A stretch of 32,694 bases of DNA from Chloroflexota bacterium (GTDB lineage: Bacteria; Chloroflexota; Anaerolineae; Thermoflexales; Thermoflexaceae), in contig JAUQQB010000002.1 of assembly GCA_030550075.1 (NCBI GenBank), positions 1-32,694 on the forward strand. Direction: 5' to 3'. Shown here piece after piece: positions 2,507 through 9,855 of the stretch. The notes beneath the pieces were generated by a model, which was not told the DNA's origin, searched no databases, and was given only the letters and a program-made list of their open reading frames with translations. Each line of letters opens with the position of its first letter. Position 1 is the stretch's first letter. The position numbers and the translations under genes are program-made.

Positions 2507-2514
2507 GTGGCTGG

Positions 2515-2590
2515 TGGCCCCGGCGGGATTTGAACCCGCGATCTCTGCCTTGAGAGGGCAGCGTCCTGGACCGGGCTAGACGACGGGGCC
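2515..2590 (-). tRNA. tRNA-Glu (anticodon CUC); CCA encoded at 2512-2514
   Basis: Cloverleaf on minus strand: GGCCCCG...CGGGGCC acceptor, CTGCC-CTCTCAA-GGCAG anticodon arm, GCGGGTTCAAATCCCGC T arm. Confidence 0.95.
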
Positions 2591-4115: not shown

Positions 4116-4729
4116 ATTCCCAAGGAGTGGGAAGCCCAGGGGGTATGGGAAAGGCTGTGGCGGCGCCTCCTGGAATGGGGATATCGAGAGAAGAAGCTGT
4201 CCCTGGAGGGGGTCGGGGTCGATGCCACGACCGTGGAGGCTAAAAAAGGGGGGAGGGGGTGGGCTTCGACGGCTACCGTCGGCGGAAGGGGACGAAGGTC
4301 CACGCGGTCGTGACGGCGCAGGGGGTGCCCGTGGGGGTCGAGGGGACATCGGCTCAGAAGTCCGAAGGGGCGGTCTTTCCCAGGGTCCTGAAGACCGTGC
4401 GGGTGGGGCGCCGGACCCGGCCTCGGGGAGTGGCCGGGGACGGGGCCTCCGATAGCCGCTCGATTCGGGCGGAGCTCCGACGCCGGGGCATCCGGGCCTG
4501 GATTCCGGTGAATCCCCGAAATCGTCGGAGGTCCCGGCGGGGACGGCCCGATCGCCGGGACCGGGAGGCGGATCGGGTCTTGCGGGGGGCGGTGGAACGC
4601 TTCTTGGCCGGGTGGAAGGGGGGCTTTCGACGGTTGGCCCTGCGTCATGAGCGTCTCCTGGCCACCTTCCAGGGTTTCATGCGCCTGGCCTGTTTCCTCA
4701 TCACATGGAGAGTTTTGGGATGAGCTCAA
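4115..4729 (+). mobile_element. IS5-family (IS427-like) DDE transposase, 5'-truncated and split by a -1 frame change
   Basis: Frame 1: PKEWEAQGVWERLWRRLLEWGYREKKLSLEGVGVDATTVEAKKGG. Frame 2: VGFDGYRRRKGTKVHAVVTAQGVPVGV...DSRSIRAELRRRGIRAWIPVNPRNRR...AVERFLAGWKGGFRRLALRHERLLATFQGFMRLACFLITW. Frame break at AAAAAAGGGGGGA (4242-4254). 5' limit approximate. Confidence 0.8.
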
Positions 4730-5135
4730 TGAAAACGGCCATCCGGGCGCGAGGAATTCGGGTCAGGCGAGCCTCTCTCAAAAGTTCGCGGACGCCCGGC
4801 CAAGCGGCCGCGCTGGCCCCGGAGCGGATGAGATGGTAGAGGAGGGTGAGAAAGTGAGTCTTTCCGCCGCCGAACTGGGTGGTGAGATTGATGCCCGGAG
4901 AGGTGCCAATGAGGTCGCCGTTCAGAAGGCGCAGCGTTTCCACCGCCATTTTTCGGAAGGCGTCGGTCAGGTAAGTGCGGGCGAAAAAGCGCTCCGGGTC
5001 CACGTAGTCCCGGGGCACCCGTCTGTCTATCACTTGGTCCAGGTGGATGGCAAACTCCCGCGCGTCCAAGGGGATGCCCTGACGCAGGTCCTCCCGGGGG
5101 ACGGCGACTTGGTGCCAGGGTTTCAGAATGGCCAT
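4701..5135 (-). pseudogene. DUF499-like ATPase, N-terminal fragment (truncated by transposase sequence)
   Basis: MAILKPWHQVAVPREDLRQGIPLDAREFAIHLDQVIDRR...DYVDPERFFARTYLTDAFRKMAVETLRLLNGD...NLTTQFGGGKTHFLTLLYHLIRSG with Walker A; stops within about 145 aa right at the IS end. Start ATG 5135 preceded by GGAGGAAAG. Confidence 0.8.
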
Positions 5136-5207
5136 CTTTCCTCCCGCAGTGCGGAGTGCAAACAATGGGCGAAGTGCGATGTGTGCGGTGTAGGATCAGG
5201 AGCGGTT

Positions 5208-6368
5208 TTACTCTTGCGGGCCTCTGGGGATTACCACCACCGTTTCGTTCCCCTCCTCCCGAATGTCCGGCTCCTGACCAATGGCCTTTTTCACCTCCAG
5301 CATTGCGCGCCGAAAACCGTTTCCTGTGTCCGTGACGAATCCAGCCCGGACAAAGAAAGAGTACAAGAGAGGATTCCTGAGCACGTGGGCCAGCCCGGCC
5401 CGGATCATTTCTACGGTGACGGTGTTCGGAAGCGGGCCAGGGCTTCGCACCTCCACCCGGTCGTCCAGAATGAAGATGCGGATGGGAGCATGAACCGTAT
5501 AGTCCCGGTGGACCAGGGCGTTGACCACCACTTCCCGCAGGGCCTTCTCCGGCAGTTCCGGATGGGCTTCCGGTTCAAAGCCCCGGATCCGATGGACGGT
5601 TCGGAGGTGGAGGTTCAGGAAACGGGCGGCATCTTCCAGCATCTGGAAAAGGGTTCCTTCAATGCGCTTTGCGTTGGATGGCTCGCCGGAGGAATCGCGG
5701 CCCGGAATGCGCGCCGCCGTGATATAAGCATAAGGGAGGTATTTCTGGGGCTCCCGACCGAAAAGGAGGAGAGCAGCCACTGTCGGGTGCTTTCGGCCTT
5801 CCCATTCCCTGACCAGGTGCCAATTGACCAACAGGATATCTGGTTCGGCCCCGGTTTCTCCCAGCGTCCGTGCGCAAAATTGTGCGAACGCAGCAATGTC
5901 TATATCCTCCGGCACGGCCCGGAGGATCAGTGTCTCTTCATAGAAGAGGCTCTCCGCGGCCTGAAAGAGCCGCAGGAGTTCCTGCCGGGAGGCCCTACGT
6001 CGCCCCGTTGTCGTCCGGATGAAGTACTCCCCTCTGTTGGTGCGATACGGACGCTGGTCCCCTTTGGGAACATGAACAACAACTACCGTCCCTTCCGGGG
6101 TTTGAACGGTTTCCTGGACTACAGTCAGAGGGGGCTCGCAATTATGGAGGGCGACGTTATCCACCTTGCGCATCCATTCATCTGGATTTTCTAATCCTAC
6201 AACGACTCGTCGCTGTTCGTCCACGCCGAAAATCATCTGGCCGCCATCAGTATTGGCGAAAGCGACCAGAGAGGCGGCCAGAGCATCGGGATGAATGGGT
6301 CCCCGCTTGAATTCAGTGTGCAGGTCTTCCCACTTCTCTATTCGCTGTTGTAATTCTGGCCAGTCCAT
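5208..6368 (-). CDS. AlbA_2/Schlafen-type putative DNA-binding, ATP-binding (HATPase_c_4-like) protein
   Basis: MDWPELQQRIEKWEDLHTEFKRG...LAASLVAFANTDGGQMIFGVDE...GEYFIRTTTGRRRASRQELLRLFQ; C-terminal half LPEKALREVVVNALVHRDYTVHAPIRIFILDDRVEVRSPGPLPNTVT. ATG 6368 preceded by GGAGGAAGT; ORF extends to 6383. Confidence 0.88.
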   Translation of the reverse strand: MDWPELQQRIEKWEDLHTEFKRGPIHPDALAASLVAFANTDGGQMIFGVDEQRRVVVGLENPDEWMRKVDNVALHNCEPPLTVVQETVQTPEGTVVVVHVPKGDQRPYRTNRGEYFIRTTTGRRRASRQELLRLFQAAESLFYEETLILRAVPEDIDIAAFAQFCARTLGETGAEPDILLVNWHLVREWEGRKHPTVAALLLFGREPQKYLPYAYITAARIPGRDSSGEPSNAKRIEGTLFQMLEDAARFLNLHLRTVHRIRGFEPEAHPELPEKALREVVVNALVHRDYTVHAPIRIFILDDRVEVRSPGPLPNTVTVEMIRAGLAHVLRNPLLYSFFVRAGFVTDTGNGFRRAMLEVKKAIGQEPDIREEGNETVVVIPRGPQE

Positions 6369-6376
6369 ACTTCCTC

Positions 6377-9154
6377 CTACCATATCCAGCCGTACTTTTC
6401 TGCGCGACGACGAAAAGCCTCTTCGCCTCCTTCCATCAACTGTTTGATAGAATCCTGAATCTCTTTCCGATCCAGGGCCCCCTGCGCCTGAATCTGCCCT
6501 CTTTCTCTCCCATCCTCCTCTCCGGCTTTCAGTGCCACAACAAGTTCGGCATGGCCCAGTACAGGGATATTGGGGTTATGCGTTGCGGCCAGCATTTGCC
6601 GATGGCCCTTCTGTGCCCGGAGAATCTGGACAATGTCTTCATAAACAAACCGATTGTCCAGGTCATCCTCCGGCTGATCTACGATAAGCATTCGCTCCTG
6701 TCCGGCCAGAAGGACCAGAACCATCGCTGTGGCTTTCTGTCCAACAGAGAGTCTCTCCAGCGGTTGCTCTGCAGCGCCAATTCTCAGGTGGACCCGAACG
6801 GCGTCTTCGGGTGAGAGGCATTCCATCTCCAGAAGCCTATCCTCGTTCTGGAGGAGGAACTGCCGTAACTGCTGAGCCCGTCCCGGACTCAGTCCGTATT
6901 GCTGCTGAAGCACATCCGTTCCCTCTCGTACGGCTTGGGCGAGAGCATAACCATCCGTGTCCTCGGCCATGCTCACCCTTTGAATGGAATCCCTATCCAC
7001 ACCGGAGCCACGAAGGAGTTCCGTCAGACGCTCGGCAAGGGTTTTCTTGTTTCCCTGATACACGACCTCTATTCTCACGCGTCTTTTTACCCGTTTGTTG
7101 ATTTCCTCTGCCTGCTGATGGCGGAGTTCCCATGCCTTCCTTCGGGCATTTCTCAGTTCCTCCAAAAGGGAGGCCCGCTTCTCCCGTAATTGTTGTAATT
7201 CCACCTCTATCTGCTGAAAACTCCGCCTTCTGGACTCCAGCCGTTCCCGCTCTTCCGTGAGCCGGATCAGGGTTTCTGGATCTAAAGTTTCCCCGCCCAG
7301 TTCCTGCTTGACGCGGCGGATTTCTTCATCCAGAGGCTGGCGAGCCTCCCGCCAGCGAGCCCAAAGACCGGTCATTTTCTGCTGTGCCTGACCGAGAACC
7401 TTCTCTCCATCCTCAAAGAGCGCGCCGAACTGACTCTCCAGGCCTATAAAATCTTTCTGGGCCTCTTCCAGGACATCCCGACATCGGCTCTCTCCGGCAG
7501 CAAGTTGTTGGGCCTGCTGCCGCCAGCGCTCCGTCCAGAATTCCCACTGCTCTTTCCACTCAACCAGCGCCTTTTTCAGTTCCTCGCTTGCCTGTTGCAA
7601 TCGCTGTTCATCCGCTGTGAGGGATGTGGCCTCTTTCAATTTCTCGGCCACGCCGGTCCGACGGTAGAGTTCCAGTTTGTGGTCAATCTGCCTCAGCCGC
7701 CCCTCTATTTCCTCCTTTTCCCGAAGTGCGGCCTGACGCTTCATTATCTGCCCAGCGTTTTCCCGAAGAGCCTCCTCCAGTTTTCGCACCCGACGTATCT
7801 GGTCTTCGGCCCGCTTTCCGATAAAAGCATCCAGCAATTGCAAACGCAACCGCTCGTTCCGGGTCACCTCATAAATCTCTTTTTGACCGAAAAAGAGCGG
7901 AGCCTCATCACCCAGGATATCTTGGGGGGGAAGCTCTACCTCCCGTTCCAGCCCCAGTTCAAAGACCCGAGGAGGCTCTCCCCATACCCGCTCAATCCGA
8001 TAGTACCGGGACCTCCCGTTTACCACCTGCTCTACGTACAGCACTCCTCTCCCCCCACTCCCCAGGGCGTGACGAACAAGTCCCTCCCGCTCCTCGGTCG
8101 GAGCATAGGGCGCAATATCCAGTATGTACCGGATCGTTTCCAGGATAGCAGACTTACCTACTCCCCGTTCGCCGATGAAGATATTCTGCTCAGGGCTAAA
8201 GGCGATCTTCAATCCTGCCAGGAAGCCTGTGCCGTCTATTTCCAGCCCCAGGAGTCTGGTATAGCGGGTCTCCGGGCGGTAGCCGGTTGTTACCAGGATT
8301 TTCGGGTCCCGCAGGGCCAGCCGAAGCGCCCGCAAGTCGTCCAGCACGCTGAGTTTCAGGTATGTGGCACGAGGAGAACCATCAGGAAGCTGCTTGGTGC
8401 CGATCTCATCAATACTGTGGTTGTCGCTGGTACGCACGCAGGCGATTCGGTCCACCTGGTCTTTCCTGATTTTGCCCGTGCTCTGCAGTCGGTTGCGATC
8501 CCTGTCGGTCCACTCCTCAATGGCTTCCGGACAGACGGCTGCCAGAATCTCCGCCGCGTCTGCCGGTAAGAAACTCTTCAACAGTCCACCGTCGTTATTT
8601 GGATGGGGAAAAATAAAAAGGCAATTTGTCTCCCGGCGCAGCCGCCCGAGACAATTCGTCAGAGTTTCCCCCGGCTTCAAATCCCGATGACGGCCATCGG
8701 GATACACCAGAGGCTCACCGGCCCGGTCATCCAGCAGTTTATCCACGGTGTTGTTGATCACATCGGCGCCCGTATTGAAGGGGAAAATCGCCAGCACGTG
8801 GAGACCGTGTTTGCCGCCCACATCGCCGCCGAAGGAGAGTTCCACGCCGGGATATACATAAATTCCCTCCGCCAGCGCCATCTCCCGGATGATTTGAAAC
8901 CATTCGGTGCGAATCTGCTGGTAATCGGTGATGGCGGCCACTTCAATACCCTGCTCCCTAAGTTGCGCAACGTACTTCTGAGCGATCTGTTCTCTGTGTG
9001 CGGTGTTCAAGTCCCGAGGAAATTGGAACGAAGGTACGCCGGGCGAGTGCAAGTGCAAATCCACCCGCACCCATCGGGCCCCACGGTATTCCTTTTTCAA
9101 CCACTCGGGAAGGACATGCGCAGTTCCGGGCGTCAAATTGGCTGCTACGCTCAT
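6377..9154 (-). CDS. PHP-domain + SMC/RecN-like ATPase (TrlF-type)
   Basis: PHP-like WVRVDLHLHSPG, AAITDYQQ, GVELSF...GGKHGLHVLAIF; Walker A IGERGVGKSAILETIRYIL; long coiled coil; signature LSVGQKATAMVLVLL and Walker B MLIVDQPEDDLDN. ATG 9154 preceded by AGGAGGGAATA. Confidence 0.87.
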   Translation of the reverse strand: MSVAANLTPGTAHVLPEWLKKEYRGARWVRVDLHLHSPGVPSFQFPRDLNTAHREQIAQKYVAQLREQGIEVAAITDYQQIRTEWFQIIREMALAEGIYVYPGVELSFGGDVGGKHGLHVLAIFPFNTGADVINNTVDKLLDDRAGEPLVYPDGRHRDLKPGETLTNCLGRLRRETNCLFIFPHPNNDGGLLKSFLPADAAEILAAVCPEAIEEWTDRDRNRLQSTGKIRKDQVDRIACVRTSDNHSIDEIGTKQLPDGSPRATYLKLSVLDDLRALRLALRDPKILVTTGYRPETRYTRLLGLEIDGTGFLAGLKIAFSPEQNIFIGERGVGKSAILETIRYILDIAPYAPTEEREGLVRHALGSGGRGVLYVEQVVNGRSRYYRIERVWGEPPRVFELGLEREVELPPQDILGDEAPLFFGQKEIYEVTRNERLRLQLLDAFIGKRAEDQIRRVRKLEEALRENAGQIMKRQAALREKEEIEGRLRQIDHKLELYRRTGVAEKLKEATSLTADEQRLQQASEELKKALVEWKEQWEFWTERWRQQAQQLAAGESRCRDVLEEAQKDFIGLESQFGALFEDGEKVLGQAQQKMTGLWARWREARQPLDEEIRRVKQELGGETLDPETLIRLTEERERLESRRRSFQQIEVELQQLREKRASLLEELRNARRKAWELRHQQAEEINKRVKRRVRIEVVYQGNKKTLAERLTELLRGSGVDRDSIQRVSMAEDTDGYALAQAVREGTDVLQQQYGLSPGRAQQLRQFLLQNEDRLLEMECLSPEDAVRVHLRIGAAEQPLERLSVGQKATAMVLVLLAGQERMLIVDQPEDDLDNRFVYEDIVQILRAQKGHRQMLAATHNPNIPVLGHAELVVALKAGEEDGRERGQIQAQGALDRKEIQDSIKQLMEGGEEAFRRRAEKYGWIW

Positions 9155-9246: not shown

Positions 9247-9855
9247 TCAATTAGGCCGAAGGGCCGTCCGGCGGCCCTTTGAAGCCCCCTTCCGGACAAT
9301 TTCACCCTGGGGCCGGGCGAGCAACCGTTTCCCTTTCTCCCGCCTCACCGGTTTTCCTCGGGGTTGGAGCCGACGGGCCGGACTCCCCATCCGCCCGATA
9401 ATTCGTCCCAACCCCCTGCAAGGATTCTCCCCCGCCCCCCCACTCCAGGGTCTGGTCGGCGAGCAGGGCGGACCGGCCTGAGCCTGGGCTTGAAGCCAAT
9501 GGGAGACCTGCTTCCGGGCGACCTGGGCGGCAGGCTGGTCGGTCGCCACTCGTCGGGCGTCCAGGAAGACAGCCCACGGCCAGCACCGGAAGGGTCGCCC
9601 CTGGGGGAGCGGGAGATGACAGGCAAACAGGGGCATCATCTGTTTAGGAGTGAACGGGAAATGGCTGATGGCTTTAAAGAGCCCGCTGTAGCGCCGGCTG
9701 CGAAAGGCGGGTTGCAGGCTCCATTCCACCACCGATCGCTCCCCCTGAGCACAGGAGAGGGCATCGATCAGGTCCATCCCAGCGTCGGCCCGATTGTAAA
9801 AGCGCAGCAACTCGTTAAGTCGCTTGCGGAATTGGGAGAGGGCGGCTGCACTCAC
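9247..9855 (-). pseudogene. Degraded transposase, N-terminal portion plus apparent internal deletion
   Basis: FRKRLNELLRFYNRADAGMDLIDALSCAQGERSVVEWSLQPAFRSRRYSGLFKAISHF...PWAVFLDARRVATDQPAAQVARKQV resembles a DDE transposase N-terminus; the remaining ORF is low-complexity read-through. Confidence 0.55.
9259..9279 (-). terminator. Small hairpin upstream of the PHP-SMC gene
   Basis: aagggccg/tccgg/cggccctt, 8-bp stem. Confidence 0.4.

What the first reader, a model, noticed from the sequence alone, without database searches (positions are those of the whole stretch)
4701..9154. Putative defence-type module: PHP-SMC ATPase + AlbA_2/Schlafen ATP-binding protein + DUF499-like ATPase
Seen in sequence: three same-strand genes in order, with the AlbA_2 start (6368) 8 nt past the PHP-SMC stop, and the DUF499-like start (5135) about 72 nt past the AlbA_2 stop, each with its own SD. 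Family knowledge: PHP phosphoesterase fused to SMC-like ATPase, AlbA_2 domains and DUF499 ATPases are each repeatedly found in anti-phage/defence neighbourhoods. Inference: they may have formed one system combining a DNA/RNA-acting PHP-SMC effector with a nucleic-acid-binding regulator. I do not recognise this exact trio as a named system.
Basis: partly seen in the sequence, partly recalled or inferred. Interest (0 to 1): 0.8.

Follow-up and report, generated by a model that had tools for sequence, protein, structure and literature searches.

The report
TrlF–TrlG cassette beside a DUF499 remnant
Two adjacent bacterial genes (trlF and trlG) form a conserved pair that recurs inside many kinds of DNA restriction-modification operons; it probably works as a back-up anti-virus growth-arrest switch, while the third gene reported with it is only a broken fragment of a neighbouring defence system.

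Summary
The PHP-SMC protein (6377-9154, -) is a TrlF-family ATPase. The AlbA_2 protein (5208-6368, -) is its usual partner TrlG: a Schlafen-fold AlbA_2 domain plus a GHKL ATP-binding domain. The 'DUF499-like ATPase' is only the first ~133 of ~941 residues of HmaC, cut by a truncated insertion sequence, so no intact trio exists.

The pair is real and old: 70 of 80 trlF loci fetched from other bacteria and archaea have trlG directly downstream. It is already named: trlF-trlG is the Photorhabdus 'temperature restriction locus', where TrlG is needed for growth arrest.

Not described in any paper I could read: the pair is a cassette nested in restriction-modification operons of at least three unrelated kinds, typically between modification and restriction genes: HmaB-trlFG-HmaC, type III mod-trlFG-res, and type I (M-S-trlFG-R; in E. 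coli R-trlFG-S-M). The window is a decayed Hma version.

Best reading: TrlF is a PHP/SMC-type sensor-ATPase that controls TrlG, a growth-arresting effector released when restriction is countered, as in PrrC and PARIS. Anatomy and context are shown; the trigger and TrlG's target are inferred.

The parts
6377..9154 (-). trlF: 925-aa PHP + SMC/Rad50-type ATPase, intact
   Evidence: NCBIfam NF045780 over residues 24-922, 438 bits; full-length homologues 50-59% identical; model pLDDT 89 with SMC/RecN/Rad50 and PHP structures as best matches
8285..9085 (-). PHP domain of TrlF (about residues 24-290)
   Evidence: HxH 34/36, D77, E105, H119, H184, D244 present in the window; E105/H119/H184/D244 are 99% conserved, HxH is lost in one clade; PHP structure 3e38 among matches
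6515..8257 (-). ABC/SMC ATPase head halves and coiled coil of TrlF (about residues 300-880)
   Evidence: GxRGxGKS 328-335, LSxGQ 802-806, DQPEDDLD 826-833 and H859 invariant or nearly so in 74 sequences
5208..6368 (-). trlG: 386-aa Schlafen/AlbA_2 + GHKL (HATPase_c_4) protein, intact
   Evidence: Pfam PF04326 and PF13749; directly downstream of trlF in most homologous loci; model pLDDT 92.6, matches DIP2311, human Schlafens and histidine-kinase-type ATPases
5991..6329 (-). AlbA_2 (Schlafen-fold) domain of TrlG
   Evidence: PF04326 residues 14-126; E14 and K21 99% conserved, E19 E or Q
5229..5489 (-). GHKL ATP-binding domain of TrlG (Pfam match; the conserved E279-R288 motif lies just before it)
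   Evidence: PF13749 residues 294-380; E279, N283, H287, R288, G351 invariant
4729..5135 (-). hmaC remnant: first ~133 codons of the DUF499/BREX-related ATPase
   Evidence: PADLOC HmaC 3-131/941, E 4e-31; same gene order in L096, L133, L145
4122..4728 (-). truncated insertion-sequence copy that ends hmaC
   Evidence: 607-bp match, 92% to C257 and 89% to C51 of the same genome; window copy breaks off at 4122
9247..9855 (-). fragment of an NF041680-family transposase where hmaB/hmaA would be expected
   Evidence: NF041680 positions 1-75 of 439, E 3e-16

Best explanation
The window holds an intact two-gene TrlF-TrlG cassette that was nested in a DUF499/Hma ('BREX-related') locus whose other genes have since been lost or cut by transposons (hmaC stump downstream; hmaB and hmaA absent). 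TrlFG is most likely a back-up, growth-arresting module that travels with restriction-modification systems. TrlF, a PHP domain on an SMC/Rad50-type ATPase, would sense that the host restriction complex is inhibited or that DNA is damaged or foreign, and would hold TrlG in check until then. TrlG, an AlbA_2/Schlafen-fold domain on a GHKL ATP-binding domain, would then stop growth, most likely by cutting or binding RNA. Shown here: gene pair, domains, conserved ATPase motifs, nesting in several restriction-modification types, and decay of the local host system. Shown by others: the Photorhabdus operon arrests growth and TrlG is required (PMC7554251). Inferred: anti-phage role, trigger, direction of control and TrlG's target.
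For: Pair: 70 of 80 TrlF loci from genome contigs have trlG on the same strand, at -79 to +58 nt with one at +268; phylum-wide, the best TrlF and TrlG hits fall in the same loci. Nesting: of 40 trlFG loci with >2.5 kb on both sides, 24 have a restriction-modification, Hma or helicase gene of these types within two genes on the same strand; the rate is 31% at -1 and 28% at +1 and falls to 0% at 6-7 genes away. Immediate neighbours scanned against all of Pfam and PADLOC are led by DNA methylases (12), ResIII (9), DUF1156 (6), HsdS (4), HsdR (3) and DUF499 (3). Independent RefSeq annotation shows R-trlF-trlG-S-M with overlapping ORFs in E. coli on a Tn7-like element, and R-trlF-trlG-S on a Klebsiella plasmid. 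Three contexts need 9 changes on the TrlF tree where 2 would be the least, so the cassette has moved between operon types. Window-specific: order trlF-trlG-hmaC equals L096, L133, L145; GC3 of trlFG (0.62-0.65) is below that of the hmaC stump (0.78) and four same-strand neighbours (0.74-0.82), fitting an inserted cassette. Effector role: Photorhabdus arrest mutants at A36, R126, P318, N335 and G354 (PMC7554251) fall on conserved columns (window A36, R124, P314, N332, G351).
Against: No phage experiment on TrlFG was found. About 40% of well-covered loci show no such neighbour within two genes, and Photorhabdus TRL stands alone. The Schlafen RNase residues recalled from SLFN13 (E205/E210/D248) are only partly matched: E14 yes, E19 E or Q, D50 not conserved, so RNase activity is uncertain. 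HxH of the PHP domain is lost in 23 of 74 sequences. TrlF also occurs without TrlG (L123, L157, L162, L163). Only the window and one other of ~400 phylum genomes have trlFG next to hmaC.
Confidence: 0.55

Rival explanations
1. The three genes are one functional three-part system (PHP-SMC + AlbA_2 + DUF499).
For: hmaC follows trlG directly on the same strand here and in L096, L133 and L145; each gene has its own SD.
Against: HmaC here is ~14% of the protein and ends in an IS. Elsewhere the same pair is followed by res, hsdR, hsdS, hmaB or nothing of the kind. The other hmaB-hmaC in the same genome has no trlFG between them.
Confidence: 0.04
2. TrlFG is a stress or temperature growth-control locus, not a defence system; its company with restriction genes reflects shared mobile islands only.
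For: The only published phenotype is temperature-dependent growth arrest, with induction on temperature upshift (PMC7554251). Some cassettes stand alone.
Against: Neighbours are interleaved inside the same operons, with overlapping start/stop codons and a typical order. Several operon types were entered repeatedly. Plasmids and a Tn7-like element carry it.
Confidence: 0.17
3. TrlF itself is the effector (PHP nuclease or phosphatase on an SMC motor, like Ppl) and TrlG is its DNA/RNA-binding regulator.
For: TrlF is a relative of the anti-phage protein Ppl (193 bits). TrlF occurs without TrlG, for example after a Dcm + Eco47II-type endonuclease pair (L123) and on E. coli and Serratia plasmids. 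Four PHP ligand positions are 99% conserved.
Against: HxH is missing in a third of TrlF proteins while the ATPase motifs are invariant or nearly so. In Photorhabdus, spontaneous mutants that lost arrest hit trlG repeatedly and trlF never (PMC7554251).
Confidence: 0.18
4. TrlG is a transcriptional or assembly regulator of the restriction-modification operon and TrlF a chaperone-like ATPase for the restriction complex (no separate effector).
For: Position between modification and restriction genes; the AlbA_2 + GHKL architecture is commonly annotated as a putative regulator or RecG-like protein.
Against: The cassette also occurs alone, and in Photorhabdus the operon stops growth by itself (PMC7554251). 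Unrelated restriction systems share it, which a dedicated chaperone would not explain well.
Confidence: 0.06

Closest known systems
TRL operon (trlF-trlG-trlR) of Photorhabdus laumondii (PMC7554251)
   Same: Same two proteins in the same order; window TrlG is 32% identical to a Photorhabdus TrlG along its whole length; TrlF meets the NCBIfam TrlF cut-off.
   Different: No trlR beside it; sits beside a DUF499/Hma remnant rather than polA; no temperature role can be assumed in this organism.
DUF499-centred BREX-related (BR) / Hma systems (PMC12839542; PADLOC Hma)
   Same: The HmaC stump, and the gene order HmaB-trlFG-HmaC in relatives. That paper already lists Schlafen + minimal histidine-kinase proteins as back-up effectors near BREX/BR loci in at least 1017 taxa.
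   Different: HmaA and HmaB are missing and HmaC is cut in the window; the PHP-SMC partner TrlF and the type I / type III nesting are not mentioned there (no hit for PHP or TrlF in its text).
PrrC / RloC anticodon nucleases (PMC3710099, PMC12707154)
   Same: Works-like comparison: ABC/SMC-type ATPase-controlled growth-arrest protein; PrrC is encoded inside a restriction-modification operon and acts when restriction is inhibited.
   Different: Single polypeptide with a HEPN nuclease; TrlFG is two proteins with PHP, AlbA_2 and GHKL domains and no HEPN.
PARIS (AriA-AriB)
   Same: Two-gene sensor ATPase + effector; AriA is among the PDB relatives of the TrlF ATPase and AriA models match weakly in PADLOC.
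   Different: AriB is a Toprim nuclease; TrlG is AlbA_2 + GHKL; TrlF has a PHP domain.
Ppl (PHP-ATPase anti-phage protein)
   Same: Same PHP + SMC-type ATPase layout, aligned end to end (PADLOC E 2e-45).
   Different: 193 bits against an NCBIfam cut-off of 1000; Ppl is known to me as a single-gene system.
Schlafen RNases (SLFN11/13/14)
   Same: AlbA_2 fold match to human Schlafen structures; the first acidic residue E14 is 99% conserved.
   Different: Second and third putative catalytic acidic residues not conserved; GHKL domain in place of the helicase part.

Membership tests
TrlF family (NCBIfam NF045780) | Score above the curated cut-off of 350 bits over full length | tested here: met
   438 bits, residues 24-922 against model 1-944
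TRL operon | trlG (AlbA_2 + HATPase_c_4) directly downstream of trlF | tested here: met
   8-nt gap, both domains present
TRL operon | Small regulator trlR in the operon | tested here: not met
   Only 92 nt between trlF and the upstream transposase fragment and 72 nt between trlG and the hmaC remnant; no room for a 79-aa gene
TRL operon | Growth arrest at raised temperature | not testable with these tools
   Needs expression in a host
Hma / DUF499 BR system | Intact HmaA helicase, HmaB methylase and HmaC ATPase | tested here: not met
   HmaC positions 3-131 of 941 only; no HmaB or HmaA in the window; the genome has HmaB pieces on C541 and C481 and no HmaA match
Ppl | NCBIfam NF042955 score of at least 1000 bits | tested here: not met
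   193 bits
Schlafen-type RNase | Schlafen/AlbA_2 fold | tested here: met
   Pfam E 5e-21; SLFN structures among Foldseek matches of a pLDDT 92.6 model
Schlafen-type RNase | Three-acid active site as in SLFN13 (E205, E210, D248; position mapping from memory) | tested here: inconclusive
   E14 99%, E19 E/Q, D50 variable in 74 sequences; mapping inferred from spacing
PARIS | AriB-type Toprim effector next to the ATPase | tested here: not met
   Partner is AlbA_2 + GHKL
PrrC/RloC | C-terminal HEPN anticodon nuclease on the ATPase | tested here: not met
   No HEPN family match in TrlF or TrlG; N-terminal PHP instead
Accessory module nested in restriction-modification operons | Recurrent placement inside restriction-modification operons of different types | tested here: met

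The most novel reading that the evidence does not exclude
TrlF-TrlG is a general, portable 'restriction guard': a two-gene cassette that inserts between modification and restriction genes of type I, type III and DUF499/BREX-related operons, senses inhibition of whatever restriction complex it sits in, and arrests the cell through the Schlafen-fold protein TrlG. The Photorhabdus temperature restriction would then be autoimmunity of a guard that lost its restriction partner: its TrlF falls inside a clade of type I-embedded cassettes and its TrlG is 63% identical to the one in the E. coli type I operon.
Probability: 0.3. Interest if true: 0.75.

Novelty: new variant of a known kind. Interest (0 to 1): 0.52.

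Why it matters
If right, one cassette serves as a back-up for several unrelated restriction systems, which makes the question 'how do bacteria notice that restriction was switched off?' testable with a single E. coli operon. It would also explain a puzzling published phenotype, temperature-limited growth of an insect-associated bacterium, as a misfiring defence module.

Tried and rejected
A three-gene PHP-SMC/AlbA_2/DUF499 system: rejected, DUF499 is a stump and the pair occurs with many other neighbours. TrlF as Ppl: rejected by score. TrlG as a confirmed three-acid Schlafen RNase: not supported, since two of three positions vary. Searches for earlier descriptions of the pair under 'TrlF', 'TrlF family', 'PHP', 'AlbA', 'Schlafen' and 'DUF499' gave only PMC7554251 and PMC12839542 as directly relevant; Krishnan et al. 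2020 (ABC ATPase survey) and Taboada et al. 2025 (bacterial Schlafens), cited by the latter, could not be read and may describe it. A literature hit on a Salmonella PHP gene (PMC7046640) was unrelated. Of 30 top-scoring HmaC loci in the phylum none shows TrlF or TrlG within 1.5 kb, so the association is a feature of TrlFG, not of Hma in general. One GC3 value (aminotransferase, a + strand gene) was computed on the wrong strand and is not used.
Full report
What is in the window. On the minus strand lie trlF (9154-6377, 925 aa), trlG (6368-5208, 386 aa) and an ORF from 5135. TrlF meets the NCBIfam TrlF family model over its full length with 438 bits (cut-off 350), and is a more distant relative of the anti-phage protein Ppl (PADLOC E 2e-45). 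TrlG has a Schlafen/AlbA_2 domain and a HATPase_c_4 (GHKL) domain. The third ORF matches only positions 3-131 of the 941-position HmaC (DUF499) model. Its frame then enters an insertion-sequence end at about 4728. The same element occurs elsewhere in the genome at 92% and 89% identity, and the window copy is itself cut at 4122. Upstream of trlF is a fragment matching only the first 75 of 439 positions of an NF041680 transposase. So the pair is intact and its surroundings are decayed.

The pair. Whole-genome searches in the same phylum gave the best TrlF hits and the best TrlG hits in the same places: G166, G310, G209, G114, G331 and G252. A scan of 85,462 species genomes gave 80 TrlF loci. In 70 of them a TrlG homologue (in a few cases split or cut by a contig end) follows on the same strand at -79 to +58 nt, one at +268; of the ten without, two end within 450 nt of trlF. 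The organisms range from Chloroflexota and Bacillota to Bacteroidota, Pseudomonadota and archaea. The pair has a name: it is trlF-trlG of the temperature restriction locus of Photorhabdus laumondii. There, mutations in trlG or deletion of the operon let the bacterium grow at 36 degrees, and the operon restores arrest (PMC7554251).

The setting. Ordering the neighbours of each locus and annotating cluster representatives (also 25 and 26) shows trlFG nested in three unrelated kinds of operon: HmaB-trlF-trlG-HmaC (L096, L133, L145, with variants in L065, L136, L064, L088, L104, L158, L159); type III mod-trlF-trlG-res (L094, L102, L106, L111, L120, and L087 and L143 with one small gene between); and type I hsdM-hsdS-trlF-trlG-hsdR (L147, L156). 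Of 40 loci with more than 2.5 kb on both sides, 24 have a gene of these types within two genes on the same strand; in two of the 24 (L091, L093) the nearby genes are Hma ATPase or helicase and UvrD-type helicase genes rather than a methylase. The rate is 31% at the gene just upstream and 28% just downstream, and falls to zero six or seven genes away on either side, which serves as an internal control. A Pfam and PADLOC scan of the immediate same-strand neighbours, independent of my own profiles, is led by DNA methylases, ResIII, DUF1156, HsdS, HsdR and DUF499. RefSeq annotation agrees independently. In E. coli the order is hsdR-trlF-trlG-hsdS-ATPase-hsdM with overlapping ORFs, on a Tn7-like element beside yhiM; 38 of 5426 complete E. 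coli genomes hold this variant. A Klebsiella plasmid has hsdR-trlF-trlG-hsdS. On a TrlF tree the three contexts need nine changes where two would be the least, so the cassette has moved between operon types; the labels are still more clustered than in shuffles.

The window fits this pattern. Its order, trlF-trlG-hmaC, is that of L096, L133 and L145 without the upstream hmaB and hmaA. The third-position GC of trlF and trlG (0.62, 0.65) is lower than that of the hmaC stump (0.78) and of four same-strand neighbours (0.74-0.82), as expected of an inserted cassette. The same genome has another hmaB-hmaC pair without trlFG. In the phylum, HmaC is in 106 of 399 genomes but lies near trlFG only in the window and in G331, so nesting in Hma is one option among several, not the rule for Hma.

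How it may work. TrlF models as a PHP domain on an SMC/RecN/Rad50-like head with coiled coil (pLDDT 89). Its ATPase motifs are invariant or nearly so in 74 sequences. Four PHP positions (E105, H119, H184, D244) are 99% conserved, but the HxH motif has become QxN in a clade of 23, so ATPase function is under stronger constraint than PHP chemistry. TrlG models confidently (pLDDT 92.6) with DIP2311, human Schlafens and histidine-kinase-type ATPases as matches. Its GHKL residues are invariant. The first putative catalytic acid of Schlafen RNases is conserved (E14), the second is E or Q, and the third is not (mapping from memory), so RNA cleavage is a guess. Photorhabdus mutations that abolish arrest (A36, R126, P318, N335, G354) fall on columns conserved in the whole family (window A36, R124, P314, N332, G351; the numbering is carried over through a close Photorhabdus homologue), so both TrlG domains are needed for arrest. 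No selected mutation fell in trlF. Together this supports TrlG as effector and TrlF as controller. The nesting supports a guard role like PrrC in EcoprrI (PMC12707154, PMC3710099) or AriA-AriB in PARIS, whose ATPase AriA is among the relatives found for TrlF. The trigger is not shown.

What was known. PMC12839542 renames Hma as DUF499-centred BREX-related systems and lists Schlafen proteins with a minimal histidine kinase as back-up effectors near BREX/BR loci in at least 1017 taxa. Its text does not contain PHP or TrlF. PMC7554251 noted type I methylase fragments near the pair on one Yersinia plasmid but did not propose phage defence in the passages I read. Two further papers that might describe the pair could not be read. 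The nesting in type I, type III and DUF499 operons with a typical order is therefore, as far as I can tell, new as a general statement; the parts are known.

Verdict. Observation partly confirmed. Interpretation partly supported: a real two-gene defence-associated cassette, but not a trio and not unnamed. Interest 0.52.

Noticed in passing
G000:C481 1-2079 (L031) and G000:C541 6678-8579: Second Hma locus in the same genome: hmaB directly followed by hmaC with a 4-bp overlap, no trlFG between; C541 may hold the first half of the same hmaB.
   Followed up: partly
window 4122-4728: Truncated insertion sequence with several relatives in the genome (92%, 89% and ~80% identical); the far end of the element is missing from the window copy.
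   Followed up: partly
L123 7285-11860, L119, L157: TrlF without TrlG lies after a C5 DNA methylase; in L119/L123 an Eco47II-type endonuclease stands between (type II restriction), so TrlF may also work without TrlG.
   Followed up: partly
L162, L163 (E. coli and Serratia plasmids): Two plasmids carry a TrlF with no TrlG beside it; 910 plasmid records match TrlF, 219 over most of its length.
   Followed up: no
L064, L065, L066, L104, L133, L136, L145, L159 and others: In one TrlF clade the PHP HxH motif is replaced by QxN while E105/H119/H184/D244 stay; the clade is rich in Hma contexts.
   Followed up: partly
L208, L209: E. coli Tn7-like element at yhiM carries a type I restriction operon with trlF, trlG and a further AAA_13 ATPase gene between hsdS and hsdM.
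   Followed up: partly
window 2512-2590: tRNA-Glu(ctc) about 1.5 kb from the decayed IS; no island ends were looked for.
   Followed up: no
G340:C63 (L081): A TrlG homologue 57% identical to the window's, without a TrlF beside it.
   Followed up: no
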